64,000 nucleotides of DNA from Roseimicrobium sp. ORNL1 (GCF_011044495.1 NZ_CP049143.1:1364001-1428000), one strand, 5' to 3'. Positions 4,152 through 59,689 are shown, numbered from the stretch's first letter. Numbers and translations: made by a program. Notes: generated by a model from the letters alone, not told the origin.

Positions 4152-4193
4152 CACCCTGCTTGCACACCGCCCCTCCCGGCATTCATTCATCCC

Positions 4194-5015
4194 ATGTTGA
4201 AAAGCCTGCTGCCATTCTGCGCTTTCGCGTTTCTCCTCAGCTCCTGTGGCGACGGCAAGCCCGGTGCATTCGACAAGGCAGGCTACCATGTCGATGGCAC
4301 GAAGGTCTGGTATCTCGCTACGTGGACGGCCAAACCTTTCGAAGTGGTTGGGGCAGATGCGGCAAGCTTTAAGCACCCGCTGCCGAAGGGCGAGTCCATC
4401 TACGCAAAAGACAAGAACCACGTGTACCTCCGCGCCCGCGTCGTGCCTGGCGCGGATCCCGCCACGTTTGAGATGTTTGATGATGAGTACTCGCGCGATG
4501 CAAAATTTGTGTATCGCGGTGAGGAGCGCATCTGTGATGATTCTGCGAACTTCGAGGTACTGGGCGGCAACTTTGTGAAGAACAGCAAGGCCGTGTACCG
4601 CCTCTATCCCAAGGTGGAGGTCCAGACCACGGACGTGGCAAACTTCCGCAAGCTGGCCCAGAGTGAATACCATTCCTACTTCGCCGACACCGAGCACGTG
4701 TATGTAAATGGCATCATCGTGGAAGGGGCCCTGCCCGCCAGTTTCAAGGTCATCAAAGGTGGATTTGGCAGGGATGAAAAACAGGCCTTCTATTTCAGCG
4801 AGCCCATGCCCGATGGCACTCTCATGGACAGCTTTGAGGTGCTGGATGGCCCCTATGCGCGCGATGGGCGGCGGGTCTATTTCATGGGGAAAATCGTGGA
4901 AGGCGCGGACCCGGTCACTTTTGAGGTGACGGACGCGAAATTCCAGCGCGCCAAGGACGCAAAGAATCGCTACCAACAGGATAAATCAGTGCCCGCAACC
5001 CCGGGAAATCCGTAA
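4194..5015 (+). CDS. DKNYY-repeat lipoprotein
   Basis: 273 residues. The N-terminus (MLKSLLPFCAFAFLLSSCGDG) is a lipoprotein signal peptide with lipobox LSSC, so the mature protein should be lipid-anchored. The body is built from repeats of the DKNYY type: a charged/aromatic motif such as KDKNHVYLRARVVPGADPATFEMFDDEYSRDAKFVY recurs as NSKAVYR, TEHVYVNGIIVEGALPASFKVI, DEKQAFYF and DGRRVYFMGKIVEGADPVTFEV. DKNYY domains are widespread envelope proteins of unknown function. It sits between DUF3592 and sucB; a hairpin with a T-run follows the stop. The start is preceded by CCC. Confidence 0.85.
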   Translation: MLKSLLPFCAFAFLLSSCGDGKPGAFDKAGYHVDGTKVWYLATWTAKPFEVVGADAASFKHPLPKGESIYAKDKNHVYLRARVVPGADPATFEMFDDEYSRDAKFVYRGEERICDDSANFEVLGGNFVKNSKAVYRLYPKVEVQTTDVANFRKLAQSEYHSYFADTEHVYVNGIIVEGALPASFKVIKGGFGRDEKQAFYFSEPMPDGTLMDSFEVLDGPYARDGRRVYFMGKIVEGADPVTFEVTDAKFQRAKDAKNRYQQDKSVPATPGNP

Positions 5016-18722: not shown

Positions 18723-18950
18723 CCGAATAATTTCTTAGCGTTAGGTACGGATTCAATCGGAATGCAGTTCACATCAAACTCCCCATCACTTCTACAGCCG
18801 ACTCCCGACCTGACCCAAGTGGATGCAGTACCCACGCATCAGCGCTGGCCGCGTGAGCTTTTGGCGTGATGCGCTTGTGACTACTAAGTACTGACCACTT
18901 CTCCCTTTTTGCCCTTTTTCGCTCCTTTCGTCCCCGAACCCCTCTCTCCC

Positions 18951-21900: not shown

Positions 21901-24900
21901 CGAGTGCGAACGAATATGACATCACCGTCAACGGCACGCTCACCCTGCGTGGACCTGCCACCTCGATCAGCAATGCCGGCACTGGCACACTGACGTTCCG
22001 TGTCAATGGACAGGTTACGGGTGATGGTGCCTTGAATCGTTACACGAACTCCGGCTTTGTCCAGCTGTCCAACAACAGCCTGACCAACCCCAACAACTAC
22101 ACGGGCGGTACCAATGTGTATTTTGGTGTCTTGTTGGCGGATGTGGGCGCGGTCAAACTGGGCACGGGTCCTGTCTACGTTTCGCCGCTTGGTCAATTGC
22201 GCATCAGCTCTATTGACCCCCTGTACCTGGATTTGGCGAACACGATCAAGCAGAAGATTGCCGTCAACTCCACGCTCACCACGGTCACTACTCAACACCA
22301 GGGTGCGACCGCGCCCAGCGCTGGTCCGACTACGACCAGCATGACGGCCAGCTTCGGCAGTTTCGAAACCGTTGCAAATTTCGCGATCGGCTCATCTGCC
22401 AATTCAATCACTTCAAGCCCAATCGGCGCGGCGTTCCGCTTGGGGAACGTCGATATGACCGGTGCCAATACGATCGACATGTCGCAGATCGGCAGCCATG
22501 CCGCTGGTAACGGAGCGTGGTTCTTGGGCGCTCGCAACGGTGACCGCACCATCAGCACCACGGCTCCCATTGGCGCAGACGGTGGCGTCTACCGCTTGGG
22601 TGCCAACGATGCTGCCACTCGCGTGCTCATCATGGGCGCGGCCAACCTGCTCACTGGAAACAACAGCGTCGTCATCGGCTCTCCCTATAACAATGTGATT
22701 TCCGGCTTCGGCGGTGGCACGGGTACGGTGCGTTACAATTTCGCCCAGAACTACACCGGCAGCACCACGATCAATCGTGGCAGCACTCTCGACATCAACG
22801 CGGCGAACACGATTCAAAATCCCATTCCTGCGGCCAGTGTGCTGAACATCTTCGGCCAGCTGGCCCTGAGCGGAAACTACACCGGCACGGGCCCGCAGTT
22901 GGGGAACACGACCTTCAACATCATGAACACCAACTTCGCCCCTGTCACCGGACAGATCGTGGGCTTGGTGATCAACAACAACGCCCTCATCACAGGGACT
23001 ACGAATCACCGCATCGGAAGCGGCGCGACCTTCAACCTGAGCTCAGGAAACATCCGCTATGTGGGTTCCACCAGCGCGGTGACTTCGCCGCAAACGTTCG
23101 GCACGGTGAACTTCCAGGGCAGCAACCTGATGGAAGTAGCCCGCGGAGCCGCTACTGCGGACAATGCCGTGGTGACGGTGGGCAGCCTCAATCGTGTGGA
23201 TGGCGGCACGATGACCTTCCTGACTACCGGCGGTACGCTTGGTGGCGCCGACACCAAACTTCTCATCAACAGCCTGAATGGCACAGCGCCGGCTTCGCTG
23301 CTGACCAATGGCATGCTCGCCCCCTGGCTCATCGAGCACAGCACGGCGGCCAGCCCGACCTTCGTGACCTATGGCGCCGCAGGCATCGCAGCCATCACCT
23401 ATGATGTGACGGCGACCACCGCTGCCCTCCTGCAGGGCGCCACCGCCAATCAAAAGGTCGACCTGACCACCGCGGTCGCCCTCACAGCCGGGGCAAACGT
23501 CTATGCACTCCGTGTGGGGAATATTGCCATCACCGGAGCCCAGACGATCACGATTGGGGCCAATGCGCCGATCCCTGATGGTGCGGGCGTCATCTTTGGA
23601 AGCACCGCCTCGCAGACTCACGCGAACAACTGGGCCTTTGGCACCGGCGGCAACCGGGAAGCGGTGGTCTACAATTCTACATCCGGTTTCACCACCACCC
23701 TGTCCGGCACTTTCAATGCGACCGGGCTGACGAAGTTTGGTCCGGGAGCCCTGTCACTCACTGGGGATAACCGCGGCGCGGGAGCCACCGCATTGCTGTC
23801 GGGCACCATCAATATCAATCAGGGCAGCCTCATCGTTGCCAACCCGAACTCCATCGGCACCCGCTCCAATCCCAACAGCCCCTATGTGGTCGAGGCCAAC
23901 GAGGTGCGACTGGCAGGCGGCAACCTGGACCTCACCGGTGCCACGGCTGGGGCCGCGAACTATCTGAATAACGTCACTGCGGTGAACAACTCCACGCTGA
24001 CCTCCGTGAACAACGCCCGTCTGCGACTGGGCAGCGTGACCGTTGCCGCACGGCAGGGCGGAGTTCCCGATCCCACCATCCTGACTGTGAATACTGGCAG
24101 TGTGGTTTTCACTGGCGGACTCACGCTGAACCAGGCCGCCATCCTGAACTTTACGCCCGCAGGTGTGAACAACATCAGCTATTTCGAGGGGGCACTCAGC
24201 GGCACGGGAGCCACTCTTGAGAAGTGGGGTGCAGGTGGGGTGGCCTTCATGGTGAACAGCGCCTATGCTGGCCCCATCACGGTGCAGCAGGGTCTCCTGG
24301 CCTCGGCTATTGGCACCTCGGGCGCCAAGCCTTTCGGCACGGGCTCGATTACGATCAATCCCGGCGCTGCACTGCGCATCTCCCATGCCACCAATGTTAC
24401 GGGTGGGATCACGATGAATAGCGATCTCACCGGTCTCGCCATCATCTCCCTGGGGTACCACGGGGCCCTGCCGGCCATCACCTTCAACAATGCCAATATG
24501 TCCGGTCCCTACAGCGGTGTGGTGGCCATTGATGTGGCGGGCTACAGTTCGAACCTCAACATGGGCACTCTCGCTGGCGGCACGGCCTTCCTGGGCAGTG
24601 TCAGCGGCACCCCGGCAGGCACCAGTGTGAGCCAAGCCTTCGCAGCAGCGACCTTCACCGGCACCCTGGCGCCAAGCAGCAATGTGTACCGGATCGGCGG
24701 CGGCGGCGGTTCCTTGAGCATGAACCGTGCAAACCAGCTCACGGGCAGCAATGTAACGGTCCACTTCGGCGCGCTGAACAACACCGTCCAGGGCAACTCC
24801 GTGGCCATGAATGGCGGTGGCGGCACCACCATTCTCAACCAGACAAACAACTACACCGGCCAGACTATTTTCAATGCCGGCCAGACCGTCACCATCGGCA

Positions 24901-27900
24901 CGCCGGCTGCCTTTGGCACCAGCACGTTCATCTTCAACGGCGGCACCATCCAGAGCGCCTTCAGTCGTGCGGTCGGATTCGTTAATGGTATCACCCTGAC
25001 CAACAATGTGAAGTTCTCGGGTGACGTTGTCTTCAACTCGAGCTTAAACGGCGCTGCTGACTTCACCCTCGCCGGGACCGTGGGTCTCTCCGACAATGCG
25101 GTGGGCGGCTCGATGCGAACCATCACGGTGAACACCTCGCCGTTCAACCAGCTTGGCGGCGGAATAATCACGATCAGCGGTGTGATCAGCGATGGCGACA
25201 GCGCTTACAATGGCATCATCAAGGCAGGCGCCGGTGCGCTGCGTCTGACGGGTAACAACACCTATACCGGTGTGACCCAGGTAAACACCGGCACGATCAT
25301 CGTTTCCAACAACAACAACCTGGGTGTGAACCGTGAAGTGAACCTGAACGGTGGCGCCCTGAGCTTCTGGAACTCCTCCTTCACCTTTGACAAGGATCTG
25401 AACTTCATCGCGGCGAGCGGTGTGGACGTGAGCGAAGGCAGCGTCATGACCCAGAGCGCCAATTCCAACTGGCGCGGCAGCGCGGCGCTCGTCAAGCAGG
25501 GCGGCGGTACTTTGATTCTCCAGGGTGACAACAGCTTCACCGGCCTCATTCTCAGCCAGGGCGTGGTGGTCGTCTCCACCAACGCGAACCTGGGCAACCC
25601 GATTACCCCTGGTGGCATCACCTTCAACAACAACGCCCAGAACCCCAATGGCGCCAACTATGGCAACGCCACGGTGGCGGTGCCGGTGTTGCGCTTCGCC
25701 GAGAACCTCACCACCAACCGTGTGGTCACCATGAGCACTGCGGGCGCCATCGACGTGGTGGCGGGCAAGACCGTCACCTTGACGGGCGCCTTTGCAGACG
25801 GCGGCGGCAACCTCTCCAAGGTTGGCGAGGGTACCCTCGTTCTGGCCAACACTGCGAACTTGCAGAACAACACGCTGATCCACCAAGGTACCCTTCAGAC
25901 CTCGGTCACGACCGGCACTCCGTTTGGTGACACCAACGTGATTCTCCACGGCGGCGTCCTTCGCTTGCTGGCGACTGCCGACAGCACCATCACCCTTGGC
26001 AGCGGAGCGAACGCCTTCCAGTTCGCTGGTGGTGGCACCCTCCGCCTTGATCAGACGGGCGCCTTCAACTCGCAGGCCACCGCCGCGAACCTCGTGCGCG
26101 TCAACCAGGGGACCATGGTTATCTCTCCTGGCGGTACCTTGGGAGGTACTTCCGGCGCCCGCTCGCGCCTTCTCGTCACCACCAATATTCTCGGTGTTGC
26201 CGCGGCCTCGGCCAATGTGAACGGCATCATCGCTCCGGTCATTGTGACCACGGATGCGAACAACAATGCGAACTTTGTGACCTACAACACCACGGACGGT
26301 TTCGTGGCTGGTGCGCCCACTACTTCCGTCACGAGCCTCTCTGGCGCACAGAGCACCGCGGTGGCAAACATCACCACGACCCAGAACCTGACCGGGGTGA
26401 ATGACATCTATGCGTTCAAGACCACGGCGAACGTGTCTGGTGGCGCCCTGCGCATCGTGAGTACCTCCGCCACCAACATGGGCGGTATTCTGATCAACGG
26501 TGCCGGTTCAGCCGCACCCGTCATCAGTACCGATCTCTACTTTGGAAACCTGGGCACTGCCGGACTTCCGTACGTGGACGTTGCGGGCTACGGTGAAGGC
26601 GTGGTCTATGTGAGCGGTGGCTATACCAGCGGCAAGGCGACGCTTAGCGGCTCGGTGAACTCGGGGAACTTCACCAAGTTCGGCCCGGGCAAGCTTCTTC
26701 TCAGTGGCACCAACAACATCCAGGGCGTGCTGACCGTGCAGTCCGGTGCAGTGGAGTTTGGATCGGGGACGTCCCAGCCCGCCTCCATTGGCGTGGTGCT
26801 TAATGATGCTGCCGCACTCGATCTCAATGGCGGCACGGTCAAGGTCGCTTCCATCAGCGGTACCGCGGGCGTGATTACCAACTCAGGCGCGAGCCCGGGA
26901 ACGCTGGTGATCGTGGGCACCCAGGACCGCTCCTGGACCGGAACCTTCGAGGACGGTGTTGGTACAACCAAGATCGTGAAGGGCGGTACGGGGGCCTTGA
27001 ACCTCGTCATGGCTTCCAGCGCGAACCCGCTGGCCAATTTGAACACGAACACGGGTGGATTTGTGCTGCGTTCCGGTTCGGTGCGCCTGGACAATGTCTA
27101 TGGTTTTGGCGGTGCCAATGGCACCATGCCAGGGGATCTTGAAATTCAGGGCGGTACGCTTTCGCTGTTCCCGGTCGGTACCGGAGTCGGGTATGCCACC
27201 ATTATTGGCAACCAGTCCACGCTGGGCGTCAATGTCAAGGTCACCGGTACAAACGTGAACTGGTTGACGGATAACAACGCCAACGGCACCAACGGATTCA
27301 ACGATCAGCGCATCCAGTTCGGAAATCTGAACGTCGGCAACGTCACCTTCAATGTCAACCCGACCACGGACCTCCAGTTCATCCGCTTCGCTGGTACGAC
27401 TACCATTGGAGGCAACAGTTCTGTCTTCTCAGTGAACACCCTGCCCAACGCTGCGCGCACGGCGATGGAATTGAGCGGCGTCATTACCGATGGCACCAGC
27501 AGTTACGCGTTGAACAAGACGGGTCTCGGATACTTGGTGGTGAGCGGCAACACCAATACCTACAATGGTGGTACAAACGTCCTGGCAGGTGTCCTTCAGG
27601 TGACCTCAACCAGCGGTAATCCGCTCGGCACGGGCAAGGTCGTGGTGAATCCCGGTGGCACCCTGCGTATTGCCGGCCTGGGGAGCTTGTCGGGCGTGTC
27701 CGATGTGGAGATCCTGAGCAACACAAGCGCGTTGGGTTACCTCGTTCTTGACAGCAATGAAAGCATCACCACGCCGTTCCTCACCACGGGCTTGAATTCT
27801 CACATCAACAACGTGCTGGCCCTCGGCGTGCCCTCATACTCGGGGACCATCGACATGTCCAAGGTTGGTGACGGCATGCAGTTCCTGGGGGCATTCAACC

Positions 27901-30900
27901 AGGCGTACGGCAGCACCGGTGTGCAGTTCGTGGGCACCCTGCTGGCCGGGGTAGGGAACCGGTACCGTGTGGGTGCCAATCACAACGGTGGCAACCTTGT
28001 ATTCTCGGGTGTCGACAACACGTTTACTGGAAACAACGTCTTGGAATTGGGTTCGCCGATTCGCTCCTATACGTTGGCTGTTATCAATCCCGGGGTCACC
28101 GTGAGCGGTGTACTCAATCCGAACTCGACGGGCATCACCGTCATCATGAATTCCAACAACTACACGGGTGGCACGATCGTGAACAACGGTTCCACGCTCG
28201 CAGTGAACGTGGGTGGCGCGGACATTGCCAGTGCGAACACGCCGCTGGGCAGCGGTATTGTGGAAGTACGCCAGGGCGGCACGCTCGTTTATGAAGGCGC
28301 ACAGGGTTCTGCTTTCCGCAGCACTGCCAATGACAATGCCAATGTCATTAACTTGATGGCAGGCGGCATGGTGCGCGTGAGCGATAACAACGGGGTCTTC
28401 ACCGGCCAGGGCGGACAAGGGCGCTGGGGTGACAATGTCGGTATCACTCTCAACGGAGGCACGTTCAGCTACCAGGGGGGGAGCAACCTGGACGGTTCGG
28501 AACGCATTGGCAATGTCCTGCTTGGAACCGGTGCCGGCACCTTGGGAATGGCTCGCATCAACTCGGGTACGGCCACTCTGATCGTCAATGACATTGTCCG
28601 TGGAAGCAACAGGGGCGTTCTTGTGGTCGATACCAGCGGCGCCAACATTCTCAATGCCGCCACTGCCTATGAGCGCCTCATCGTGCTGAATCCGACCTTC
28701 GCCGCCAACGCGGGTGCTACCATGACGGGTTCGGGAGCCATCGCGGGCATCGCTCCGGTATGGATGGTCGATGGCGACAACAACACTTTCCTTAGCAACC
28801 AAGGTTCGATCCTCGGACTTCAGCCGCTCATCAGTGCCGCTACCATGGGAGCCGGCCAGGTGGGATACAGCCACCGGATGACTGCCACCGGAACCTTCAC
28901 CACTGGACTCAACACCGGGACGGCGACAGTCGATGTCTCCGGCGGCACCCAGACTTTGGGCGACGACACAAACATCTACGCCCTGCGCACCAGCCAGGCG
29001 ATTACTGCCTCTGGGGCCAACGATACAATCACCCTTGCCAGCGGAGGACTCATTCTGACCAATACGGCCGACATTGACATCACGGCGAAGATCACCACAC
29101 CGGGTGAGTTGTTCATCTACCGTCCAGCCACAGGGGGCATTACCAACCTGTCCGGAACCATCACTGCGGCAGGTATCACCAAGTGGGGCACTGGTGATAT
29201 GCGCATCAGTGGTGACAATAGAAACACCCTCACGGGAGATATTGTGTTGAGCGGACACCAATGGTTCCGTTTCAACAATTTGTGGGCTCTCGGTGGTGAT
29301 ATTGCCAATCCGTACGCCGACAGCAACCGTGTGATTTTGAATGCTGGCCAGATCCACAGCGACGTCGCCAACCAGTATTATCGGAGCGACCTCATCATCA
29401 ATGCGGACTCAAACATTGGTGGCAACAACATGATCCTCAAGAGCCTGACGATCAACAGCACCAGCTCTGCCTTTGGCACACCGACTGTTTATCGAGCCAC
29501 AAACAACAGCGCCATGAGCTACGAAGGCGTGTCCACGTTCAATGCCAACGTCTCCTTCATGACGGAAAACGCCGTGAACCTCTGGGGTGGGATTGCCGGA
29601 GCTGGCAGCTTCCAGAAGTGGGGCTCAGGCGGCTCCGTGAACATTGGCGGCAACAATGCCGGATACAACGCCTCCTTCACCGTAAATCAGGGCCTCGTGT
29701 ACAGCGTGAGCGGTGCAGCGGGCAGCAAACCGTTCGGCTCCGGCACTCTGATTGTACAGCCCGGTGGCGCGCTGGGCATTGTCCATGCGGACAACATCAG
29801 CCAGGGCGTCGTGATCAACAGCGACATGTCGGGCCTCGGCGTGCTCTCCATGCAGTATGTGGGGGCGGTCCCGCTGTCTTCGGTGACCTTCAACAACAAC
29901 GGAGCGAACTATGATGGCGTCATCGCCATTGACGTGGCGGGCTACAGCTCGGTCATCAATCAAGGAGCCATCGCCAACGGACGTACCTTCCTGGGCGGCA
30001 CGATTGCCCAGGGCTCGGCCTATACCGCGACCACCCTTGGTGTGGGTGCCGGGAACACCTACCGCTTGGGCGGTGGTGGCGGCACGTTGTGGATCAATTC
30101 CGCGGTACTCTCGGGTGCCGGCAATTCGGTCCAGTTCGGAGCTATCAGCAATAACGTACAGGCGCAAAGCATCGCCCCCGCGCTCGGCGGCGGCACCATC
30201 TTGGTGAACTCGATCAACAGCTTTGGTGGGAATGCCTACATCAACTTGGGGCAGACCGTGGAAATTGGGAACAACATGGCGCTGGGCACATCCACCATTG
30301 TGTTCAACGGCGGCACCTTGCGACCCAATGGCAACCAGGGTATTGGACGCCTAACCAAGAGCATCAATCTTTCCAACGATGTCGTCTTCATGGGGGATGC
30401 CATCATTGATGCCAACGGTGTGGACTTCACGTTCAACGGCGACATCAGTCTCAGCGACGCTGGCACGGGCGCGGGCGCGTTCCGCACCGTCACCACGAAC
30501 AACTTGAATGCCCGGGTCGTCTTCGCAGGCACGGTTCAGGACGGCCCTGGCGTCGCCATGAATCACCTTGTCAAGGCAGGTGCAGGGTATCTCGCCCTGA
30601 CCGGCACGAACACGTACACCGGATTCACCCAGATTAACGCAGGCACCCTTGCCGTGGGCAGCGCCGGGGCCATCAATGCAGCCTCTCACATCATGCTGAA
30701 CGGAGGCGCGCTGGCCTTCTACGATGTGAACTACAATCTAAACAATGACATCACCGTGTTGAATGCGGCGAGCACGATTTCCGTGGGCAACAACCGCACG
30801 GTGGTGCAGAGCGCCTCCAGCAACATCTCCGGCCTCACCTTCACCAAGAATGGCAATGGGGTCCTGAAGTTGAATGGCAACAACAGCTTCAACGGCCTCA

Positions 30901-33900
30901 ATATTTCTGGTGGCCGTGTTGAAGTGTCCACCAATGCAAACCTTGGCGAGGTGGTGACTCTCACCGGAGTTGGTGGCCCGATTAACCTCACGGGTTCGCG
31001 CTCCACGGGTGGTACACTTGCCATCACGGACAGTTTCACCACATCGAGAGCCATTGCGGCCCTCGCAACCGGTTCCATTGACGTGGCATCCGGAGAAACG
31101 CTCGCGACGTTCGGTGCGGTGACTGGCACCGGCACGCTGATCAAGCTGGGTGGCGGCACCATGGTCGCACTCAACGGAAGCGCGGTGCAGAACCTGACGG
31201 TCTCGGAAGGTGTTTACGCCGTAACGTCCAGCAACGCATTCATTTCCTCCGTCGCTGGTGTGACTGCCACCGCAGGCGCGGTGGGCCAGAACACGGTCAC
31301 CGTGGCCAGTGCCACCGGGTTGTACGTGGGATTGACGGTCTCTGGGACAAACATCCCTGCTGGCTCCTACATTGTGGCCATCAATGGAAACGTCATCACG
31401 CTCAACACCACCATCACCACCGCAGTGGCCAACAACACTGCCTTGACGGTCGGTTCCGCAGCAGCGTCCAACCTCAATTTGCAGGGTGGCATCTATGCCC
31501 TGGTGCAGAATGGTTCCAATATCAACGTCGCTGGTGGCAGCACGGTCACGCTGAATGCTGGCGGTGGCGGTCACCTCCGCTTGGACAACACGGCGGCAGC
31601 TTCGACGCAAATCGCTGTGCAGAACATCAACCGCGTGAACAACGGTACGCTGGTCATTGATGTGGGTTCAGCACTGAACCTTGGACAGGCAGGCAATGGC
31701 GGGGCCAGGGTGATTGCCACGAACGTGTTCGGCGTGGCCCGTGCGTCAGCCGTGGTGAACGGCATTTTCTCACCCACGATTGTGGGGGTGAACGGGGCGG
31801 GTACGCCCACGTTCCTGGCGAATGATGCCACCAACGGATTCGTGGCCTATAGCGGCGCGACTGTCACCGACATCAATAACGTGGCGTTCAACGGAACCAG
31901 TGTGGCGGACTTCACCACGGCGCAGGTTCTCACGGGGAATCGCACAGGATATGCCATCCGCACGAGCAGCAACATCGGCACCAGTGGTAACTCCGCGCTT
32001 CGCATTGTAAGCGTGGGCGCCACCGTGGCGGGAGCAGGGCAGGGCGGCTTCATTCTGCATGGCACAGGCGCGGCTCCAGTCATCAGCGCTCCAGTCATCT
32101 TCGATCCATCGGGCTTTGCTGGCGGTTCAAACCGCTCGGGTGAAGGCGTGGCTTATGTGGCCAACAACTTCACTTCCGGCACCGCGGCCTTTACCGGGTC
32201 CCTGGTGGCCAATGGCTTCACCAAATTTGGCCCTGGCACGCTGGAACTTCGCGGCGACGCTACCATCTTCAGCGGCGCGGCTGCAACGGGTCTGAACATT
32301 CAGGAAGGCACCGTACGCCTCAGCAGTGGCGGCAAGTTCGTCGGGATGACCACTGATGTGTACATCAACAAGGGTGCGACACTCGATTTGAATGGCAACT
32401 CGATCTCGGTCGACAGCATTGCAGGTGCCGGTGGCTCATCCGGTGGCTTGATCACCAGCGCCGCTCCTGCCGTACTGAACGTCAGCGGCCCGGGCATCGC
32501 CACCGTCCGTGCGGGGACCACCACGTCGGGAAGCAACACGCTCACCGGCTTGAGCTCGACGTCGGATCTCTATGTGGGAATGTCCGTCTCAGGCGTCGGC
32601 ATTCCTGTCGGTACAATCATCACCTCCATTGCCAGCGGCACTTCCGTCACGCTGAGCAACAATGCGACGGCTGCGGGAACACCCACCATTACCTATGGTA
32701 CGGGAGCTTACTCCGGGCGCATCGGTGGGGCCATCACTCTCACCAAGACAGGGAATGGCTCGCTCACCCTCGGTGGCCCGCGCGCGGAATCTCCCGATGC
32801 TGGCAACAACACCTTCACCGGCGGTGTGAAACTCTACCAGGGGTCCCTGGCGGTGCAGAGCAACTATGGTCTGGGCGGCTACGGTGGTGCAGCCACTGGT
32901 GCTGTGGATCTGTATGGCGGCACCCTCGTGCTTCAGAGTGACGGTGCCGGCGTAAACGGCAACACGGTGTTTGGCAACGAAAGCGTCGGCGGATTGACGC
33001 TGAACCTCAAGGGCAATGCCACGATCACGTTGGATCGCGCTTTTGGAGCCACTGGCTCTGCCACCAATACCCTTGGCAACACCATCCAGGTCAGCACGCT
33101 GAACCTCAACAATGGTACGTTGACGCTCATGTCCCCCGTACTCGCGGTGGCAAACGTTACCGTGACCCAGAACAACACCATCATCACCGTGCCGTCGACC
33201 AGCGGTTTGCAGGTCGGCATGCAGGTGACGGGGACCAACATTGGCGCGGGCGCAGTAATTACTGCCATCAACTACGGGAACAATCAGGTCACCCTGAGTG
33301 TGGTGAATGCGAACGTGGCGCAATCCACGCAGACCATCACCTTCACTGCGCCCACCGCGACGCCCACCGTGAGCATGAGCATCACGGTGCCGCAAAACAC
33401 CAACACCATGACGGTCACGTCCACTTCCGGTCTGGCGGTAGGCATGGTGGTGTCGGGGACCAACGTCACCGCAGGTTCTGTCATCACGGCCATCAATCAC
33501 ACGACAAACGTCATCACGTTGAGTGCGAACACCGCAAACGTGGGTGCCAGCACGCAGGCCGTGACGTTCACCGCTCCCGCGACCAACTACGGGCTGCTTG
33601 TGAAGGACAACACGAACATCCTTGGCCAGTATGCCACCATCAACCAGCCCACCAACGGGCCGAGCCAGCGGATTGAACTTGCGGGCAAGATCACTGGCAC
33701 GGGCGCTCTCAACAAGACCGGTGGTGCGGTGAATGAATTCCGTACGCTCGTCATCTCTGGAAACGCCAACACCTGGTCCGGTGGTCTGAATGTGATCTCC
33801 GGTTCGGTCCAGATCACCGCCACCAGCGGTACGCCACTGGGTACTGGTTTGGTCCGTGTCTTCCCGGGTGCGACCCTTCGTATTGCGGGCAATGGCAGCA

Positions 33901-36900
33901 TCAATGATCCGAGCAAGCTGCGCGTGTTGAGCTACATGAACACTTTGGGCAGCATCACCCTGGACGAAGACTTCAACCCCACGGTGCTCAACAGCACCAA
34001 CTTCGCCAGCGTACAGAATGTCGCGTTGCTCCTGGGCCGCTCGATGTGGAATACATCCCTGAACATGGGTGCGATTGGCGATGGTCGCGCCTACCTGGCC
34101 TCGGGCATCGGTACCGAAGTCAACTACCTTGGCACAACCCTTGGCGTTGGCGCCGGCAATGTGTACCGCCTTGCTGGTGGAGCTGGTGGCACGCTGGCCT
34201 TCAGCGGCTCTGACAATGTGTTGACCGGTACTGCGCGAGTGCAGTTTGGTTCGGAACGCAGCAACGTCCTCAACACCGGAAATGCCAACTCCGTCACCAA
34301 CCTGGGTGGCACGGTGATCATCCGTAACTCCAACAACTACAGCGGCGGCTCGTTCATCACCAAGGGCACGACAGTGCAGCTGGACACAGGAGCAGCTCCT
34401 GGTGGCGCTACGCCGCTGGGCACGGGAATCGTGGAAGTTTACGGTACGTTGCAAACGGCCCCAGACGCTCCTGGCTACAATGGATCAGCCTCCTTCGTGA
34501 ATGCCGCCACCGGTGCGAACCCCACGAACGCCAACACCATTGTGTTGCGTCCGGGCGGCAACGTCATCATCAATGATGCTCCCGGCACAGTCGCTGGTGG
34601 CGAAGGCCGCTGGGATGATCAGGGCGCGGTGGATTTGAACGGCGGTGTCTTCCGTTTCAACGGGGCCGCCAACTACCGCAGCGTGGAAACCATTGGTGAC
34701 GTCATTGTCCGCAAGGGCGGCACCCTCCAGGTGGTGAGATCCGGCACGGGTGGCAGCAGCGCGACCCTGAATATTGGCAACCTGACCCGAGAGGATCGAG
34801 GCACCCTTTCAGTGCTGTCCTCCGGTGCCCAGCTCGGCATCCCCGCCAGCAACCCCAACCACTGGGATCGCATCATCACGACCAGCGTGCTGGCGCGCGG
34901 AGGCGTTACGAACAACGGCGTGGGAGTCGTCAATGGTGGCATGGTGGCCCCATGGATGATTGATGCCCAGAACAACACGTTCATGGGATATGACGCCATG
35001 GGCATCGGTTCAGGCTTCCAGTCCATCCAGAGCACCGCCACCCCGGTGGCGGGCACCCTTGCCTACTCGGACATCATCACCACCGGCACCTACACTCCGG
35101 CGAACTTGACGGCGACCGACATCGTCGATGTGACTACGGCGGACCTTACGCTGACCAGCGACGCCACGGTGTACGCCCTGCGCACAAGCCGGACGATCAA
35201 CGCCTCCGGAACCAATGACTCGCTCACCATTGTGAGCGGTGGTTTGCTTGTCAACACCACGGCGGTCATCCACAACACGGGCCTCACGGGAACTGCCAGC
35301 ACCCTGCAGAACATGACGCTGAACTTCGGCTCTGCCGAGGCGATGGTCTTTGTTGCCAGCAATCAGACAGCGACGGTGAACGCGAACATCACAGGCAGCA
35401 ATGGCCTGACCAAGTTCGGCACGGGCACCCTTCTGATCAATTCCAACAACACCCTCCTCACCGGACCCATCACGGTGAATCAGGGCACTCTCTCCGTTCG
35501 CAACGGCATCGGCGGCGCGGGTGCACTCAACGGCCAGGACGTCACCCTCACGGGCAACAACGCCACGCTGACCCTGGACGGCTTTGTGCTGAACAACAGC
35601 GGCACCCACAGCCAGAACGCCACGAACGTCCGTGGCACTGCGAACAGCAACTTGAATGTGACCATCACGGGTGACTCCACGCTGCGTGTGGTTGACACCG
35701 GGGGCTCCGCGACCCATACCCGCCAAACCATCAACAACCTGACGTTTGCGAACTCCGGTCCGGCCCTCACGGCCAACAGCACCATCACGCTGACCTTGGG
35801 TAACGGCGTTGAAGTGTTGGGCACCACTACCTTGATCGCAGCCAGCCGCATCAACCAGATCGACACTGGCAACGCTTCTGCCGCGGGCTCCACCTTCACA
35901 GGCAAGGTCACCGGCACTGGTCCGCTGGACAAATACACCTCCGGCACAGGCAACATCCTCACACTCGCCAGCGGCGCCAACGACTACAGCGGCGGCACCT
36001 TCATCCGTGGTAACAACAGCTCGGTACCGAATATCGTGTCCTCCGGCACCCGCACCGGCACGCCCTTCGGCACCGGAGCCATCACGGTGGAGCCCGGTGG
36101 ATTCCTGCGCATTCAGGACCTCTCCAATATCGCCAACAATCCGGTCACGCTGATCAGCGACGATCTTGGTCTATCCGGCATTTCTCTGGGCTACAGCCGC
36201 GGTGCGCTGCCCTCGTTCATCACTGTTGGCACGCCGGTGGGTGGGCAGGTGAAACTTCAGACCACGAACCTCAACGGCTTCAGTGGAGTACTTGGTATTG
36301 ACGTCGCCTCCTTCTATACAGGGATCAACATGGCCACCTTGGGCGACGGGAAGATGTTCATCGGCGGTACGGTGCAGAGCATCCCGTTTGTGAACACGCC
36401 GTTCAACAACTTCAACTACCTCAACCAGACGCTCGGAGCGGGCGCGGGCAACGTCTACCGCCTCGGCGGTGGCAACGGCACGCTCATGAACTTCGGTGGC
36501 GCGATCTTTGAAAACGTGCTGACCGGTACGGCCAGTGTCGAAGTGGGCGCAGGGATTGGTGATCTCGGCAGCAACGGCGGTGGCTTGCTGGGTACTCGTG
36601 GTACCTTGGGCGGACTCACCCGCCAGGACTTCAGCGGAAATATCCGCGTGAATGTGGGCAGCATCATCCAGCCACAGAACAGCTTCGCCTATGGCACGGG
36701 CAAACTCATCATGAATGGCGGCCAGATGTCGCAGTTCTCGGGCAACATCGCCCTGGTGAACGACATCGACCTGACCGCGGACTTCCTCCGTGACGGCAAC
36801 TCCCAGTTCGTGCTGCTTGGGAACATCAACATGTCGCCCGGTGGCGTCGGTTCCCCGCGCAGCTTCATCATCAACGGCTCCAGCCGCATGGTGGTCAATG

Positions 36901-39900
36901 GTGTCATCAGCGGTGCGGATGGCAGCAATTTCACCAAGACGGGTGTTGCAGAATTGGTCCTGAACAACAAGAACACCTATCAGGGTACCACCACCCTGGG
37001 TGGCGGGGCCGTGTGGTTCAACAGCGACATCATCGCCAACCAGGCTGGCGCCTTCGGTATCAGCGATACCCCCATCATGGTCTCCGGAAGCAGCGTGATG
37101 GCTGCCGGCCAGGTGGTCATCAACCGCGATCTCATCTACACGTCCAGCGGTGAACTGCGCGCCTGGACACCGTTCCAGGTGACCGTGAATGCGGATGTCC
37201 TGGTGAACAGTGGCGCCACTCTGACCGTCAGTGCGCTGCGCGGGAGCAATGGCTACCTGAGCAACGGCATCGACTTCCGTGGAGCCATCACGGGCCAGGG
37301 AGCCCTGGTGCTGGGTGATACCGGCAACAACGGCCGCAGCGGCACCATCCGCCTCTCCTCGTCGGATCCGACTGGCATCAGCCGCAACACCTATGCCGGC
37401 GGCACCACCATCCGTGGCGGTCGTATCCAGATTGCTTCGGACAGCTACTACGTGGGAACTGCCGCTGCGCCTACGAACATCATCTCAGGGCCGTTCGGCA
37501 CGGGGTCGATTGTCCTCTCGGGCATTGATACAGCCTCGTTCAGCGGCAACGTTCGCTCCTTTGGGATGTTTGAGGCCTACGGGGCGGACCGCACCGTGGT
37601 CAATCCCTTCGGCACCTTCACTGGTGTTGACGCCAACGCGAACGTCTTCTTCGGAGGTCGCTACAACCTCACGTTCGCAAACACGACGAGTGTGAACATC
37701 AACACCGACAACACGCTGCGCAACCGCGTGTTCCAGGTGAACAACACGACGGGTGTGGTGACCTGGAATGCGGGCATGACCAATACCGGCACCCAGGGGA
37801 TGAACTTCCTCAAGACCGGCAACGGCACCCTGGTGCTGGGTGGGGCGACCACCGTCAACACCTTCGCCAACATCCTCAGCTCCGACGGAAACTACGGCAC
37901 CAGTATCTTTATTGATGGTGGCATCCTCCGCGTGAGTGCTGATACTGCACTTGGCAGCGCCAATGTGGGCGCAACGACCGGCGGTCAGTACAACGTGGCA
38001 AACTCCGCCGCCCAAATCCGCATCCGCGGGGTGAACAACACGGCGAACACACTCCAGACCGTGACTTCGCTGCAGGCGGCCGCGACCTTCAGCTCAAGCC
38101 GTACGATCCTGTTGCAGACGGCCAATTCGTTCAATGGCATCGATGTGATGAGCGGGGCCACGCTGACCTGGAACGGAGAAATCCGCGACATCAGCGGTGG
38201 AACGGTCTCCTTGGTGAAGTCCGGTGCCGGCACCCTGGTGCTGAACAATGCGAACACCACCGCCTTCGCGGGTACCGCGACCGTTGGCACGACCTTCGCG
38301 AACTCGTTTGATAACCTTATCATCGGTGGTCTCGCGCAGAACAATGTTACCCTCAATGGCGTCCAGAACGGCCGCGGAGTGGGCGGCGGTGTGGTCTCCA
38401 CCACGGTGAACACGAGCTCCACGCCGTTTGGCACGGGCAGCATCACCATCCATGGCGGCACCCTGCAGCTCAACAACGCCGGTGGTGTGAACACGAACAT
38501 GGCGCTTTCCATCCCGACGCTGAACTACGGCGCGGGTGCGAACATCCGCCTCACCAAGGCGACGGGCGGCACGGGCATTGCCCAGCTCACGGCTTCGACC
38601 GCATTCAACCGCGTGGGAGATGGCACGTTGGTGCTGCAACTCGACTCGCTGGCGGACCTCGGCGTTGGCAATCGCTTGATGGTCACCGCGGGCGCACCGG
38701 GCAACACCAACAACATGCTGACCACTCCGACGGTGGTAGCCAAGGTAAATGGCGCGAGCCAGGATGCTGAGTTCACCCGCTATGATGCGACCAACGGCTT
38801 CCTGCTGATTGATCGCGGTTCACTAAACGTGACCAGCCTCTCCGCATCGGCCGCTACCAGCAATGCGGACATCAGCATTCTCGCCAACGGTGTGGTGGGA
38901 GCCGGCGACATCGCCGTCAACTCGCTGCGCACCTCGGTGAACATCACGCCGACGGATGGCACCTCCCGCCTGCTCATCGGCAGCGGTGGCATGATCATCA
39001 ATGGCGCCGCGCCGGTCGACATCAGCGCGAACCTGCTCTTCGGCACCGGCACCGGAGCCAACCTGAAGCAGGCCCTTGTCTATGTGCGTGACGGCCAGTC
39101 CGGTACTGGATTCTCCAGCATCACGGGTGGTTTCACCGCGACGGACTTCGTGAAGTTCGGCGCCGGCAACCTGCTGATTGGCGGCACCAACAATGTGATG
39201 GCTCCAGCGGCGAACTCCAACCTCCGCAACTTCGTAATCAACGAAGGCTCGGTGAAATTCGCCAGCGCCGCCAGCCTGCCCAGCCTGAATATCTCCGGAC
39301 TCGGACCGGTGAATGGCGTGAACATCAGCGGGGTGAACCTGAATGTGAATGAGACCTCCGTGTTCGACTTAAACGGGTTGTCCCTCGGGTTCGCTGGATT
39401 CAGCGTCAACATCGTCAACAACGTCGCCACCGGCACCATCACGAACAACGGCGCTGCTGCCACCCTCGTGATTGGCGGTCACAACCAAAACACCACCTTC
39501 CAGGGTGCGATGACCGACGGCACCGGCGCGCTTGCCTTTGTGAAGAGCGGTTCCGGCAACGTCCAGCTCATCGGCAACAGCACCTATTCCGGTGGCACGA
39601 CCATCAATGCGGGCACCATCATCAGCTCCAACGTGTTGGGCAGCCAGACGGCTCTGAGCGGCAACTTTGCCGTTACGAACATGGCCACCGGTGTACTGCG
39701 GGTGGACGAATACCAGGGTCTGGGCACCGGACCGATCACCCTCGCGGGCGGTACCCTCCAGCTCAATTCACTGCGCACTCTCGAACATGAAACCGAGGAT
39801 GGCTTCAATGTGCTCACCTTCGGACCCACGGCCCAGGGTGGTTATGACATTGTGGTCAGTGCGCAGAACAACTTCGGATCGAGCAATACCACCAGCCGCA

Positions 39901-42900
39901 TCTACAACAACAATGTTGTTACCACAGGTGCGTTCTCGGCGGTGAGAAGCCTGAAGATTGATGCTTCCGCCATCACCTTCGATGGCGCTACGGATACCGG
40001 CTTGTTTGTCCGCGGCACCACGACGCTGGCAGGGGATACCCAGATCAACACTCCCCGAAATGTGGTCTTCGGCGGCAAGGTGGCCGGTACCGGCGCCACC
40101 AAGGTGACCAAGACCGGCCAGAGCACCTTGTTCCTCACGAACTCGGATGCTGGCACGAATGCCAACTCGGGCATTGCGGCCTGGGACATCATGCAGGGCC
40201 TCGTGGAAGTGCGCATGAGTGATGGCACCACTTCCAACCCGTTGGTGGATGGCAGCACGATCACCATCAATGGCGGTGGCACCCTCAACATCCGCCATGA
40301 AGGCAATGGACTGGAAAACCTCCAGCGCATCACGACCTTCCAGACGAACAATCTGCAGTCCGGCAGTCTCTTCGGTGTGGAAAACAGCAACTTCATTGCC
40401 TCCGGCAATGTGAACGCGATCAACCTGAACCGCTGGTCCCTCAACTCAGTGGCGCAGAACAAAGCCATCTGGTTCAACAACTTGAGCGTGGGTGGCACAC
40501 TGGGTTCGCCAATAACGAGCTTCAACGGTGGCAACAACTACAGCGCCTGGATCAATGGCACCACCACTGCGGTGAAGGACATGACCCTTCATAACGACTC
40601 TGTGATCGTGACCTTGAATGGCAACATTGTCATGCCCGGCACGCTCCTGAAGTACGGTAACCAGAGCGTCTTCGTGAATGCGGACAGCACCGCCACCCAT
40701 ACTGGCGGCACCTGGATCAACCAGGCGACCCTGTTCTTTGGCACCCAGGAGAGCGTTGGTTACCAGACCTTCAACATGAGCAACACGGCGAAGGTGGGCG
40801 CGGGCAACATCTTCGTGCAGGCAGGCGCGGCGATTCAGTTCAATGCTTCCACCAACGTGGCAGTGGGCCAGATCACTGAGATCCACAGCAGCCTCACGAA
40901 CTACGGCATGATTCGCCTGGCTTCCAACGAAGCCCTGTCGAACTTCAACCTGCGTGCGGCCAACGGCTACGGCGCGGCCGCCGTTCTGTCGCGTGGTTCC
41001 GGCTCCAATCAAGTGGGCCAGAGCTTCACCCTCGCCACGAACATCGGCGCCGGTGTGCTCTCCCTTGGCTCCGTCTACACTCAGACGCTGGACATGGCAG
41101 CGATCGGTGACGGCACCTGGTTCCTCGGCTCCGCCTCGAACAACATCGGCCTGCAGGGCAGCTACAATGCCTCCACCCTCGGTGCTGGCGTCGGTAACAT
41201 CTACCGCCTTGGCGGGGGAGCCAGCACGTTGAACATCGGCAGCGACCTGGCCTTCGACAACATCCTCTCCGACGGTTCACGTGCGGGAGTGGCCAACCGC
41301 CTCGTCGTAGGCAGCATCGCCGCCCAGAATGCCAGCGTGGGTAACACCACGGGCACGGTGATGATCCATACCGATCAGAACTACACGGGCAGCACCCTGG
41401 TCAATCGCGGCAGCGTGCTGGATCTCCGCGGACGGCTCGCGTCCTCGACCTATGAAGTCTACGGCACCTTTATCCTGAGCGATCAGGGTACCATGGTGAA
41501 TGCGGCCAACACGGCGAACATCGCCACCAGCGTGATGCTCCGCGGCGGCAGCGAACTGCGCTTTGACAACACCAACGGTGGACTTCCCCCGGCAGCCACC
41601 ACCCAGGGACGCTGGGCGGACAACGCGGGAATCACGCTCGACAGCTCGTCGCTGCGGGTGACCGGCTCCATGACCATGGACCTGGTGGAAAATGTGGGAG
41701 CCCTCACGGTGAAGGGTGGCTCCGGTGTCGTGGTCCAGCGGGGTACGCAGGCGCGTTACATGCAGATCAATTTCGCGAGCCTTGTCCGCGGCGCCAATGC
41801 CACGCTGACACTTCAGGGACTGGCCCAGGCCAACCACAACAGCGCCGCTACTTTGGGCACGGCCGGTATGCTGGGTACGGACGAGCGCATTTCCGTGACT
41901 GGCGGCGTGCCGGTAGTCAACAACATGGTGGCCCCATGGATTTGGAATGCCGTGGATGGACAGTTTGTCACGTATGGTCCCAACGGGTTTGTGAATGCCG
42001 GGTGGAGCGTTTCCTCTACCTCGACGACGCCCACTGGCGCCATTGCGGCAGCCACGGATCGTCTCCTGATGACGGCAACCAATCCGGTGCTTTCGAGCGG
42101 TCCGCTGAGCGTGTGGGCGCTGCGTTATGACTCGGTGAACAACTCCACCGCCTCCATCTGGACCGCCACCAATCAGGCCACAGACGTGCTGAACATCGGC
42201 AGTGGTGGTGTGATTGCCGGCGGCGGTGAGAGTGTCGCGCTGCACCTGAATACGGTCTACGGCGGGGGCACGGGCGAGGCGATCTTCCACGTCGTCAACG
42301 CAGCCGCTGAGGTGACAACGCTGTTCATCGGCAACAGCTCGAACAACGCCACCGGCCAGATTTCCGCCTCGTCGATCATCAAGGACGGACAGGGCATTCT
42401 TTCACTGGAAGTCCCCCAGTCCACCTTCACGGGCAATGTGGTGCTGAATGCCGGTACGCTGGCGGTGCGCAACTTCGCCACGACCGATACTGCGGCCACC
42501 AATACGGCGGCGGGCAATGGCGGCACGATCATCATCAACGGTGCGGGTGCGACGCAGAATGGCACGGGTGCCACCCTGCAGCTCCGCGCACGTGGCTCGG
42601 CGAACAACGTGTTCGTGGACATTCCCAATCACATCCTGATCGGGGAGAACAATCCGCTCGCCCTGATTGATGTGAACCAGAGCAGCACCACCACCGGAGT
42701 CATGATTCGCGCGGCGAGTTTGACCTTCAGTGGCATCACGGGAGCGGACGCCACTCCTGAGAGCCGTGAGCAGGGCCAGACCCTCCAGGTCTCGGGCGGG
42801 AACAACTTCTCCTTCGGTGTTCTTGGGACCACGAACCTCGGCCCCAGCGGGAACGTCTTCTTCCGCACGGAAAACTCAGGCGCCAACATTGTGCTGTTTG

Positions 42901-45900
42901 GTGAAGTGACCGGCGCGGGTACCCTGGTTCGCGCCCAGCAGATCGTCACTGGCCTCAATCCGGTGCCGACCATGATCCTGGCCAACACGACCACGGCGAA
43001 CACCTACACAGGTGGCACCATTCTCATGGGTGGTACCATGGAAGTCCGGGCGAAGTCCTCCACCTCGACCAACACCACAAACGCCACCACGGCGCTGGAT
43101 CGCGGTGGCTTTGGCACGGGTGATGTCACCCTCCTTGGCGGTCAGTTGAACCTGAGGGTGGATGGCAATGTCACCGGGACCAATCGTGAGCGCTTCACGA
43201 TGGCGAACAACTTCATCGTGCGCGGCAGCTCCACGATTGATCTCAACCAGATCGCCACGGCAGCGGCGATGGGCTCGCCCGGCGGCGGTGTGGGTGGTAC
43301 GACCAAGCACGTGCGCATTGCTTCATTGGACATTGGTTCCCAAACGCTCACCGTACAGACAGGCAACAGCTATGTGGCGGAGTTTGGCAGCGTCTTGCTG
43401 CGCGGTACCGCGACCTTGAACAACACGCAGGACTTGGTGCTCTACGGGGTGAAGGATGGCTCCAGCGGCACCGACAAGGCTGGCCTCTACCTCATCAAGA
43501 ACGGTGGTGGGGTGCTTTGGGTGAATGACGCCACCAGCACTCTCAGCGGTGGTATCGTGGTGAACGCTGGCCAGCTTCGCTTCGGTGACAACGCCGCGGC
43601 TAATCCGAACGCCATGATTGGCACCGGTCTCATCCGGGTGAACAACGGCGCCGTCGTTCGTCTGGAAGGCCCGGGCAACCTGGCGAACCAGTCTGATCCG
43701 GTGAACATGCAGAAGATCCTGGTGAACAGCACTCCGCTGGTGATGTCCCGCGTCGACCTGCGCAACACGTCCATCACGCCGGACTTCCTCAATAACGATC
43801 TCCAGTTCATCCACGATGATTCGTCCGGTCTCCTTGGCATTGAAGGGACCTACGGGAACACCTTGAACATGTCGCTCATCGGCAATGGCCGCATGTGGCT
43901 GGCTGCGGACAACGGAGGGGGCACTTATTCCGCCACCTCGCTGGTCGCAGGTCTGGGCAACGTGTACAACGGTGACACCAATGAAATCTACCGTCTGGGT
44001 GGTGGTCAGCAGACCCTGAGCTTCACCGCGACGAGCAACAGCGTGCTGACGGGCCTCACTGCGAAAGTGTACGTCGGAAACCTGTCCACCAACGTGAACG
44101 GCAGCGTCGCCTTCAACAACACCAACGACTATGGTGGCGGCACCGTGGTGATGCCAAATTTTGGTGCTAGTACCAACACTGCCACAGCTATCATCACCAC
44201 CGGTGGCGCCAATACCCCGCTGGGCTCGGGAGCAGTGGATGTGTTTGGCACGCTCACCGCCCGTGGCACGGCAGGTACGTTCGTCAATGGCACCGGCAGC
44301 GCGAACACCAATGTGATCAACCTGCATCCGGGTTCCATCCTGTCGTTGGACGGCAACTCCGGAACCGCAGGCAACAACAGCGACCGTTGGGCGGATTCCA
44401 CAGGCATTGCGCTGAATGGCGCCACCTTCCTGTTCCAGTCTCAGTCGGGCACGGCGATTACCGAAACGGTGGGCGCCTTCACCTTTGAGCGTGGTTCCCG
44501 CATCAGCATCATCAATCCCGCCAGTCCCACCGCGGCCCAGATCCTCATCACTTCATCGCTCACCCGCGTGGGCGACGGTACGATGGTGTTTGTGCCAGGA
44601 GATACGTTCGGAACTTCGGCGAACAACACGGACAACCTGCGTATCGCCGGAGCACTGCCGGCGCTCTCCAACGGCATGATGGCCGGTTACTACATCAACG
44701 GATTCAGCAATAACTTTGTGACCATCGTGGATGTGGGCGGCAACAAGCAGGTGCAGGATGTCACCTACACGCAGACGGTGACCACCACGACCTTCCCGAC
44801 CGGCCTCACGGCGGGCACGGATCGTGTGACGGTCAACTCGGTGAGCCCGGTGATGACCGATGACGCCGTGCTCTATGCCTTGCGCTTGAACAACGCCAGC
44901 CTGAGCAGCGGAGCCGGTCGCATCAATACCGTGACCTTCAAGGAAGCAGGGACTGAGATGGGTGGTCTGCTGGTCAGCGGTGGCAACCCGACCGTCAGCA
45001 CCAACCTGAAGTTCGGCAGCGCCGGCAACAAGGAAGGCCTCATCTACATCGAGAACGGTCGCACCATGACCATGACCGCGGACATTGCGGCCAGCCAGGT
45101 CACGAAGTTCGGCACCGGTCTCCTGACCATCAGCAAGGATCAGATGACGTTCGATCAGACAGCCAGGGCGAACTTCAACTGGGTGGTCAATGAAGGCACC
45201 CTCCAGTTGAACACCTTTGGAGCGAGCGGCACCGGCGCCATCACACTGAACGGCCAGAACACCACGCTGAACCTGCGCGCCGTAAGCGCCAACCCGCTGA
45301 ACACCGTCTACAGCATGTCGGCCATCAACGCGGTGAACTACAGCACCATCGATTGGGATTCCACCATCAGTGATGCCACGGCCACCATTGGCGCCATCAA
45401 CGTGACCAACACCGGCACGGCGACGGGCGTGGGTGACGATGTTCCGGCCCACCTGCGGTTCAACTTCGCCAACAGCCGCCTGCGTAACTTCCTCAATACC
45501 GGGGTCATCACGCTCAACGGCACCACCGCCGTGGATGTGAACTGGGGCGCCAACACCACCAACGGTACCAACTCCGGCATCATCGCCGGAGGCCTGGCGG
45601 GAAGCAGCACGCTCCTCAAGTGGGGCAATGGCTACATGTACGTCCGTGGAAATAACAGCGGCTTCAGCGGCAAGGTCTTCATTGAACAGGGCGCAATCGG
45701 AGTCCTGAACAACGGCGCCCTTGGTACGGGAGCGGTCACCGTGCGCAAGTACGGTGTGCTCGACATTGGTGTGTCGAACTTCACTCCCACCAACAGCAGC
45801 ATCACCTATGAAAAGGGTGGTATTGAGCGTTGGAGCGTGGACAGCGCCCGCAGCGGCACGGTGAACCTTGCCGGCGGCACTCTGCAAATCAATGCGGACC

Positions 45901-59619: not shown

Positions 59620-59648
59620 TTGACGGCTTTTGTCGTTTCTGATTGAAT
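59620..59648 (+). promoter_or_regulatory. Candidate promoter of the Verru_Chthon cassette
   Basis: TTGACG (59620-59625, 5/6) and TTGAAT (59643-59648, 4/6) with a 17-nt spacer, about 40 nt before the ATG at 59690. Confidence 0.4.
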
Positions 59649-59689
59649 TGCGATTAATCGGGGCCCTGTCTCCGCACGTCTCTCTTGCT

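What the first reader, a model, noticed from the sequence alone, without database searches (positions are those of the whole stretch)
22500..44800. Giant protein built on a double-unit higher-order repeat
In the 10,039-aa protein two long motifs (B: GDGxxFLGG...GNxYRLGGG; A: GMVAPW...YALR...TKFGTGTL) alternate strictly, eight copies each. B-to-A spacing alternates short/long through pair 7, giving a true period near 5.3, 6.2 and 7.0 kb. This looks like growth of the gene by repeated duplication of a roughly 2000-residue cassette, far above the level of the single PATR strand. I know of no description of this level of organisation.
Basis: partly seen in the sequence, partly recalled or inferred. 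Interest (0 to 1): 0.75.

Follow-up and report, generated by a model that had tools for sequence, protein, structure and literature searches.

The report
Bacterial giant protein with alternating super-repeat
A 10,000-residue bacterial surface protein is built from two kinds of large module that alternate in a fixed order, and related bacteria keep that order module by module, so the pattern is old and conserved; it resembles the 'super-repeats' known from muscle giants such as titin, but is built from beta-helix modules.

Summary
The ORF at 18909/18951-49070 (+) holds eight B and eight A blocks in strict alternation. B-to-A spacers read 127, 395, 126, 450, 130, 640, 119, 125 aa, that is S-L-S-L-S-L-S-S. 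Self-comparison shows one continuous diagonal at a double-unit offset (about 1,800, 2,070 and 2,340 aa), far above shuffled controls. L units fall on one side of a tree branch at 100% support, and linkers mostly duplicate with their units. Relatives in Verrucomicrobiaceae, plus one genome of another family in the order, encode 6,700-14,700-aa proteins with the same order: S-(LS)2-S in most, S-(LS)3-S here and in one other. Most units match the same position in another genus better than any sister unit in their own protein. So the cassette duplication is real but old, and units stay individually distinct. AlphaFold models are beta-rich and align with autotransporter-type beta-helices. The C-terminus is a PEP-CTERM signal; the genome has three exosortase genes. 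Best reading: a giant, exosortase-processed, surface-attached beta-helical rod, probably an adhesin or matrix scaffold. It is a new variant of a known kind: super-repeats are known in titin and nebulin, and other PATR giants here also carry 1,000-2,000-aa duplications. Function is untested.

The parts
18909..49070 (+). Giant PATR/PEP-CTERM protein gene, 10,053 aa from TTG 18909 or 10,039 aa from ATG 18951 (start not tested); signal-peptide-like N-terminus
22155..22808 (+). B block 1 (S unit 1)
23190..23777 (+). A block 1 (S unit 1)
24330..24908 (+). B block 2 (L unit 2)
24909..26093 (+). long spacer of L unit 2 (395 aa) with PATR matches
26094..26714 (+). A block 2 (L unit 2)
27621..28217 (+). 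B block 3 (S unit 3)
28596..29222 (+). A block 3 (S unit 3)
29730..30278 (+). B block 4 (L unit 4)
30279..31628 (+). long spacer of L unit 4 (450 aa) with a PATR match
31629..32261 (+). A block 4 (L unit 4)
33834..34394 (+). B block 5 (S unit 5)
34785..35450 (+). A block 5 (S unit 5)
36063..36686 (+). B block 6 (L unit 6)
36687..38606 (+). long spacer of L unit 6 (640 aa)
38607..39191 (+). A block 6 (L unit 6)
40791..41426 (+). B block 7 (S unit 7)
41784..42419 (+). A block 7 (S unit 7)
43614..44186 (+). B block 8 (S unit 8)
44562..45143 (+). A block 8 (S unit 8)
23772..29219 (+). Double unit D1: linker + L2 + linker + S3 (about 1,816 aa)
29220..35450 (+). Double unit D2: linker + L4 + linker + S5 (about 2,077 aa)
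35451..42419 (+). Double unit D3: linker + L6 + linker + S7 (about 2,323 aa)
48993..49061 (+). PEP-CTERM sorting signal (TIGR02595, 19.5 bits, cut-off 16)

Best explanation
The gene encodes a giant, exported, exosortase-processed surface protein that forms a long rod of right-handed beta-helix. The rod is an ancient super-repeat: a module S (B block, about 125-aa spacer, A block) and a lengthened version L (same B and A, spacer of 395-640 aa that includes PATR coils). Linker + L + linker + S was duplicated as one block, giving S-(LS)3-S here and S-(LS)2-S in most relatives. Shown: module order, grouping of all L units, similarity of whole blocks with their linkers, conservation of order across genera, purifying selection in one pair of homologues, the PEP-CTERM match, exosortase genes in the genome. 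Predicted: the beta-helix. Inferred: surface location after exosortase cleavage, and that the rod presents A and B at set intervals to bind polysaccharide matrix, surfaces or other cells (adhesion or matrix scaffolding).
For: Self-diagonal at the double-unit offset. L/S split on one branch at 100%, one change of type against 23.4 in shuffles. Linkers mostly match by kind: S-to-L z 10.0 and 4.7 (third pair none), L-to-S z 10.6, 8.8 and 3.9, cross pairs at most 4.2. Same order in 13 further long proteins, one of them cut by a contig end. C-terminal double unit separates from the others at 100%. Most units are closest to the same position in other genera: unit 5S 49% to G009 2S against 37% to its best sister; 6L 49 against 37; 7S 45 against 32. 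dN/dS 0.16 over 11,505 codons between two relatives, with all twelve 1,000-codon blocks under 0.23. Models of an L unit and of S plus the next B: pLDDT 82.4 and 77.7, pTM 0.79 both; re-alignment to solved beta-helices and autotransporter passengers gives Z up to 12-13. PEP-CTERM over its cut-off; three exosortases over cut-off.
Against: No expression, localisation or phenotype data. Foldseek itself gives no match at E 0.001, and best Z of 12-13 for repeats is only moderate. A and B match no Pfam family beyond a marginal PATR hit in two B blocks, so their binding role is a guess. The gene is patchy: the one other genome of the genus that was searched has only a shorter L-S-S protein. The time of the D1/D2 duplication is not settled: the L half does not reject a window-only duplication, and the A+B cores of L2 and L4 group within the gene, which may mean partial homogenisation or weak signal.
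Confidence: 0.6

Rival explanations
1. There is only a single B-A unit repeated eight times; the long spacers are separate PATR insertions that happen to fall in every second unit.
For: L and S units share the same B and A blocks, and PATR repeats vary in number in other proteins (PMC9704523).
Against: L units are one side of a branch at 100% in a tree built without the spacers; long spacers of units 2 and 4 are themselves similar (209 bits); linkers outside the units mostly follow the same two-unit period; the order recurs in homologues.
Confidence: 0.05
2. The array is a young, growing one: the extra double unit in this protein was made recently in this lineage by unequal recombination.
For: D1 and D2 are the most alike double units within the protein (stretches of 33-41% identity), L2 and L4 pair at 89% in the unit tree, and the other gene with three double units also shows its first two L units paired.
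Against: Identity is only about 33-48%; D2 groups with D1 of six relatives at 99% to the exclusion of the window's D1; sister relation of window D1 and D2 rejected, AU p 0.0086 whole and 0.003 in the S half.
Confidence: 0.15
3. The module order is kept because units have position-specific partners or spacing roles along the rod, as titin super-repeats do on the thick filament.
For: Order and unit identity are conserved at positions across genera, and most units resemble their positional counterparts more than their sisters.
Against: Simple descent without homogenisation gives the same pattern; no partner or ruler target is known; copy number differs between relatives (two or three double units).
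Confidence: 0.2
4. The protein is a storage or decoy bulk protein, or a degenerating relic, in which the repeats have no specific role.
For: Patchy distribution and great length variation (6,700-14,700 aa).
Against: Open frame over 10,000 codons with no stop, and dN/dS of 0.16 along a relative's whole length.
Confidence: 0.05

Closest known systems
PATR / TIGR02601 beta-strand-repeat giants with PEP-CTERM in Verrucomicrobiota
   Same: Carries PATR matches, a beta-helix prediction and PEP-CTERM; this genome has about 150 PATR matches over many genes.
   Different: Most of the A and B blocks is not PATR; the ordered S/L super-repeat with B is found in this genome only in this gene.
Titin A-band super-repeats (PMC7427331) and nebulin super-repeats (PMC7109182)
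   Same: Unlike modules in a fixed order, repeated as a block within a giant protein.
   Different: Eukaryotic Ig/Fn or helical modules with known filament partners; here predicted beta-helix modules, three block copies only, no known partner.
Classical (type Va) autotransporter passengers, e.g. antigen 43, IcsA, pertactin
   Same: Predicted fold aligns with these passengers.
   Different: No autotransporter beta-barrel family found in the scans; the C-terminus is a PEP-CTERM signal instead.
Periscope proteins and other repeat-number-variable adhesins (PMC9704523)
   Same: Rod-like surface proteins whose length changes by repeat number.
   Different: There repeat number variation goes with DNA repeat identity; here units are 25-48% identical and most positions have their own lineage.
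Giant1-5 proteins of Apilactobacillus kunkeei (PMC12863079)
   Same: Giant extracellular proteins of 3,000-8,000 aa with a beta-solenoid domain.
   Different: There the solenoid is an N-terminal domain on a long rod; I found no alternating super-repeat described in the passages read.

Membership tests
PATR (PF12951 / TIGR02601) protein | PATR repeats over the curated cut-off | tested here: met
   18 and 14 stretches in the two halves by Pfam, 19 and 13 by NCBIfam
PEP-CTERM/exosortase substrate | C-terminal Pro-Glu-Pro, transmembrane stretch, basic cluster over the TIGR02595 cut-off | tested here: met
   19.5 bits against 16; VPEPGRALLLVFGFAALLLRRRRNK
PEP-CTERM/exosortase substrate | Exosortase encoded in the same genome | tested here: met
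   three PF09721 matches over cut-off
Type Va autotransporter | C-terminal outer-membrane beta-barrel | tested here: not met
   Pfam reports only PATR for aa 1-9,997; the last 756 aa give PATR, PEP-CTERM and partial passenger-type matches in NCBIfam, no barrel
Type Va autotransporter | Beta-helical passenger | tested here: inconclusive
   predicted only; Z to 12-13 on re-alignment, but no Foldseek match at E 0.001
Super-repeat giant (titin-like organisation) | Unlike modules in fixed order, repeated together as a block | tested here: met
Super-repeat giant (titin-like organisation) | Ruler or partner-spacing function | not testable with these tools
   needs localisation and mutants
Periscope (repeat-number-variable) protein | Near-identical tandem repeats | tested here: not met
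   no tandem arrays up to a period of 500 bases; units 25-48% identical over A+B cores

The most novel reading that the evidence does not exclude
A family of bacterial giant beta-helix proteins uses an ordered, position-specific super-repeat as a structural ruler or patterned display on the cell surface, so that double-unit number sets rod length while each unit keeps its own role.
Probability: 0.2. Interest if true: 0.7.

Novelty: new variant of a known kind. Interest (0 to 1): 0.5.

Why it matters
It gives a clear, testable history for how a 10,000-residue bacterial protein arose: a module, a lengthened module, and block duplication of the pair, followed by long independent descent of each copy. 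Units here stay distinct by position instead of being made alike, which suggests that module order may be under selection. It also defines two modules (A and B) without a Pfam family, in a group of very long bacterial proteins.

Tried and rejected
Whole-protein self-BLAST collapsed to one hit; 400-aa segments were used instead. The alignment of the eight B blocks was too diverse for the named-genome scan; a close-relative alignment worked. The A profile matches two nanobodies in the PDB (E 7e-5 and 0.71): treated as chance, since the many other nanobodies in the PDB do not match. Conserved gene neighbourhood: several relatives share flanking genes with each other, but the window's gene does not share them. 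The Verru_Chthon cassette next to the gene is not listed near the homologues of relatives that the search covered (G009, G011, G027, G028, G032, G034), so it is not used to infer function. Papers on PATR, giant proteins and PEP-CTERM gave no description of this super-repeat. Two AU tests (all three window double units together; window D1 with G032 D1) did not finish.

Full report
What is there. The ORF at 18909-49070 (+) has 10,053 codons from a TTG, or 10,039 from an in-frame ATG at 18951. The protein is rich in G, T, A and N. It has a signal-peptide-like start (by eye), PATR matches and a C-terminal PEP-CTERM signal over its cut-off.

The repeat. Eight B and eight A blocks alternate without exception. 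B-to-A spacers are 127, 395, 126, 450, 130, 640, 119 and 125 aa: short (S), long (L), S, L, S, L, S, S. The A-to-B linkers also alternate: 187, 303, 171, 526, 205, 534, then 399. In segment self-BLAST, one continuous diagonal runs from aa 1601 to 5580 at the double-unit offset, drifting from about 1,800 through 2,070 to 2,340 aa. Its best scores are 191-292 bits (weaker parts 108-143); five local shuffles reach at most 95.5 and the reversed protein at most 89. The long spacers of units 2 and 4 match each other too (209 bits), and PATR matches lie in both. Linkers mostly match by kind: A1B2 with A3B4 z 10.0 and with A5B6 z 4.7, though A3B4 and A5B6 do not match each other; A2B3 with A4B5 z 10.6 and with A6B7 z 8.8, A4B5 with A6B7 z 3.9. 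Pairs of unlike kind reach at most 4.2. The last linker, A7B8 (S to S), also matches A5B6 and A6B7 (8.4, 6.8). So the block that duplicated is best read as linker + L + linker + S, and the array as S-(LS)3-S.

On the A+B cores alone (spacers left out), units 2, 4 and 6 form the best of 56 possible three-against-five splits. With 72 homologous units added, all L units lie on one side of a branch at 100% SH-aLRT; type changes once on the tree against 23.4 times on average in shuffles.

Relatives. In this genome B occurs only here; A has weak matches in other PATR proteins. Among 96 genomes (own included), 33 have B; in an even draw of 388 genomes of the phylum, 10 do, own included. Named relatives are MAGs of Verrucomicrobiaceae, one called Prosthecobacter. 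I read long frames from 18 gene regions of relatives. Five read S-L-S-L-S-S; one is cut at a contig end after S-L-S-L; seven read L-S-L-S-S after divergent N-terminal regions with A-like blocks only; one, G032, reads S-L-S-L-S-L-S-S as here. One of the seven, G082, is of another family in the same order. A second, shorter group reads L-S-S (G001, G018, G006), and a partial frame in G027 reads S-S-L-S-S.

Age. In a tree of 31 double units (1,666 columns), the C-terminal double unit (window D3) separates from all others at 100%, and the window's D2 groups with D1 of six relatives at 99% while its D1 lies outside. Holding window D1 and D2 together is rejected (AU p 0.0086). Split by halves, the S half rejects it (p 0.003); the L half does not (p 0.34), and the L spacer alone pairs them weakly. 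In the unit tree L2 and L4 pair at 89. I read this as an old block duplication with weak or partly homogenised signal in L; the exact branch is open. These trees are quick searches with SH-aLRT support only. Most units are nearer to the same position in other genera than to any sister: 5S 49% against 37, 6L 49 against 37, 7S 45 against 32; L2 and L4 are the exception at 48% to each other. Two close relatives differ with dN/dS 0.16 over 11,505 codons, under 0.23 in all twelve blocks. The gene is kept by selection in that pair, yet its distribution is patchy.

Controls. The two neighbouring PATR genes in the window show no comparable internal duplication, but other giants of the genome do: the 6,261-aa protein has offsets near 995 and 2,050 aa at up to 195 bits, the 5,502-aa protein near 1,870 aa at up to 166 bits. 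Large-cassette duplication is thus a wider habit of these proteins here; the strict two-type order with B is particular to this family.

Structure and function. AlphaFold2 models of L unit 2 (803 aa, 16 sequences, pLDDT 82.4, pTM 0.79) and of S5 plus B6 (1,046 aa, 17 sequences, pLDDT 77.7, pTM 0.79) are almost all beta strands. Foldseek's best matches are mostly autotransporter and other beta-helix structures, none at E 0.001; re-alignment gives Z up to 12.3 and 13.2. A and B have no Pfam family beyond a marginal PATR hit in two B blocks. The genome has three exosortases over cut-off, and Verrucomicrobium spinosum was reported with 65 PEP-CTERM proteins in the paper that defined the signal (PMC1569441). 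From general knowledge of beta-helices (about 0.48 nm rise per coil, 20-25 residues per coil; my estimate) one double unit would span roughly 40 nm and the protein roughly 200 nm if it were one straight rod. I therefore read it as an exosortase-processed surface rod for adhesion or matrix building; only the sequence organisation and its conservation are shown.

Known or new. Super-repeats are known in titin (7- and 11-domain blocks, PMC7427331) and nebulin (PMC7109182). Giant beta-solenoid surface proteins are known (PMC12863079), and repeat-number variation in PATR proteins is known (PMC9704523). I found no account of an alternating S/L super-repeat in PATR giants, within an open-access library only. 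I rate it a new variant of a known kind.

Noticed in passing
window 49288-59532, 59630-64000 and on to position 66872 counted in window coordinates (L079): Directly downstream lie a second PATR/PEP-CTERM protein (3,414 aa) and a Verru_Chthon cassette, proteins A, B, C and D. The genome has about ten protein-A matches; the role of this pseudopilin-like cassette next to PATR giants is unexplained.
   Followed up: partly
window about 31300-33570 (aa about 4130-4890): A short motif of the form GLxVGMxVSGTNIxAGxxITAIxxNxITLS recurs about four times in the long spacer of unit 4 and in the linker after it; by eye only. Such inserts may explain part of the growth of the period from 5.4 to 6.3 kb.
   Followed up: no
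G000:C1 3985001-4015000 (L091, L092) and 5081001-5106000 (L093, L094): Two other PATR giants of this genome (6,261 and 5,502 aa) have their own long internal duplications with offsets near 995/2,050 and 1,870 aa.
   Followed up: partly
G035, G036, G027, G038, G053, G011 (C25), G082 proteins, N-terminal halves: The largest relatives (11,500-14,700 aa) carry A-like blocks without a detectable B, often 900-1,100 aa apart, before the conserved L-S-L-S-S part: perhaps older, degenerate units.
   Followed up: no
G000:C1 about 1351929-1353100 (in L080): Two adjacent frames resembling an IS3-type transposase pair lie upstream of the window, near another PATR gene; by eye only.
   Followed up: no
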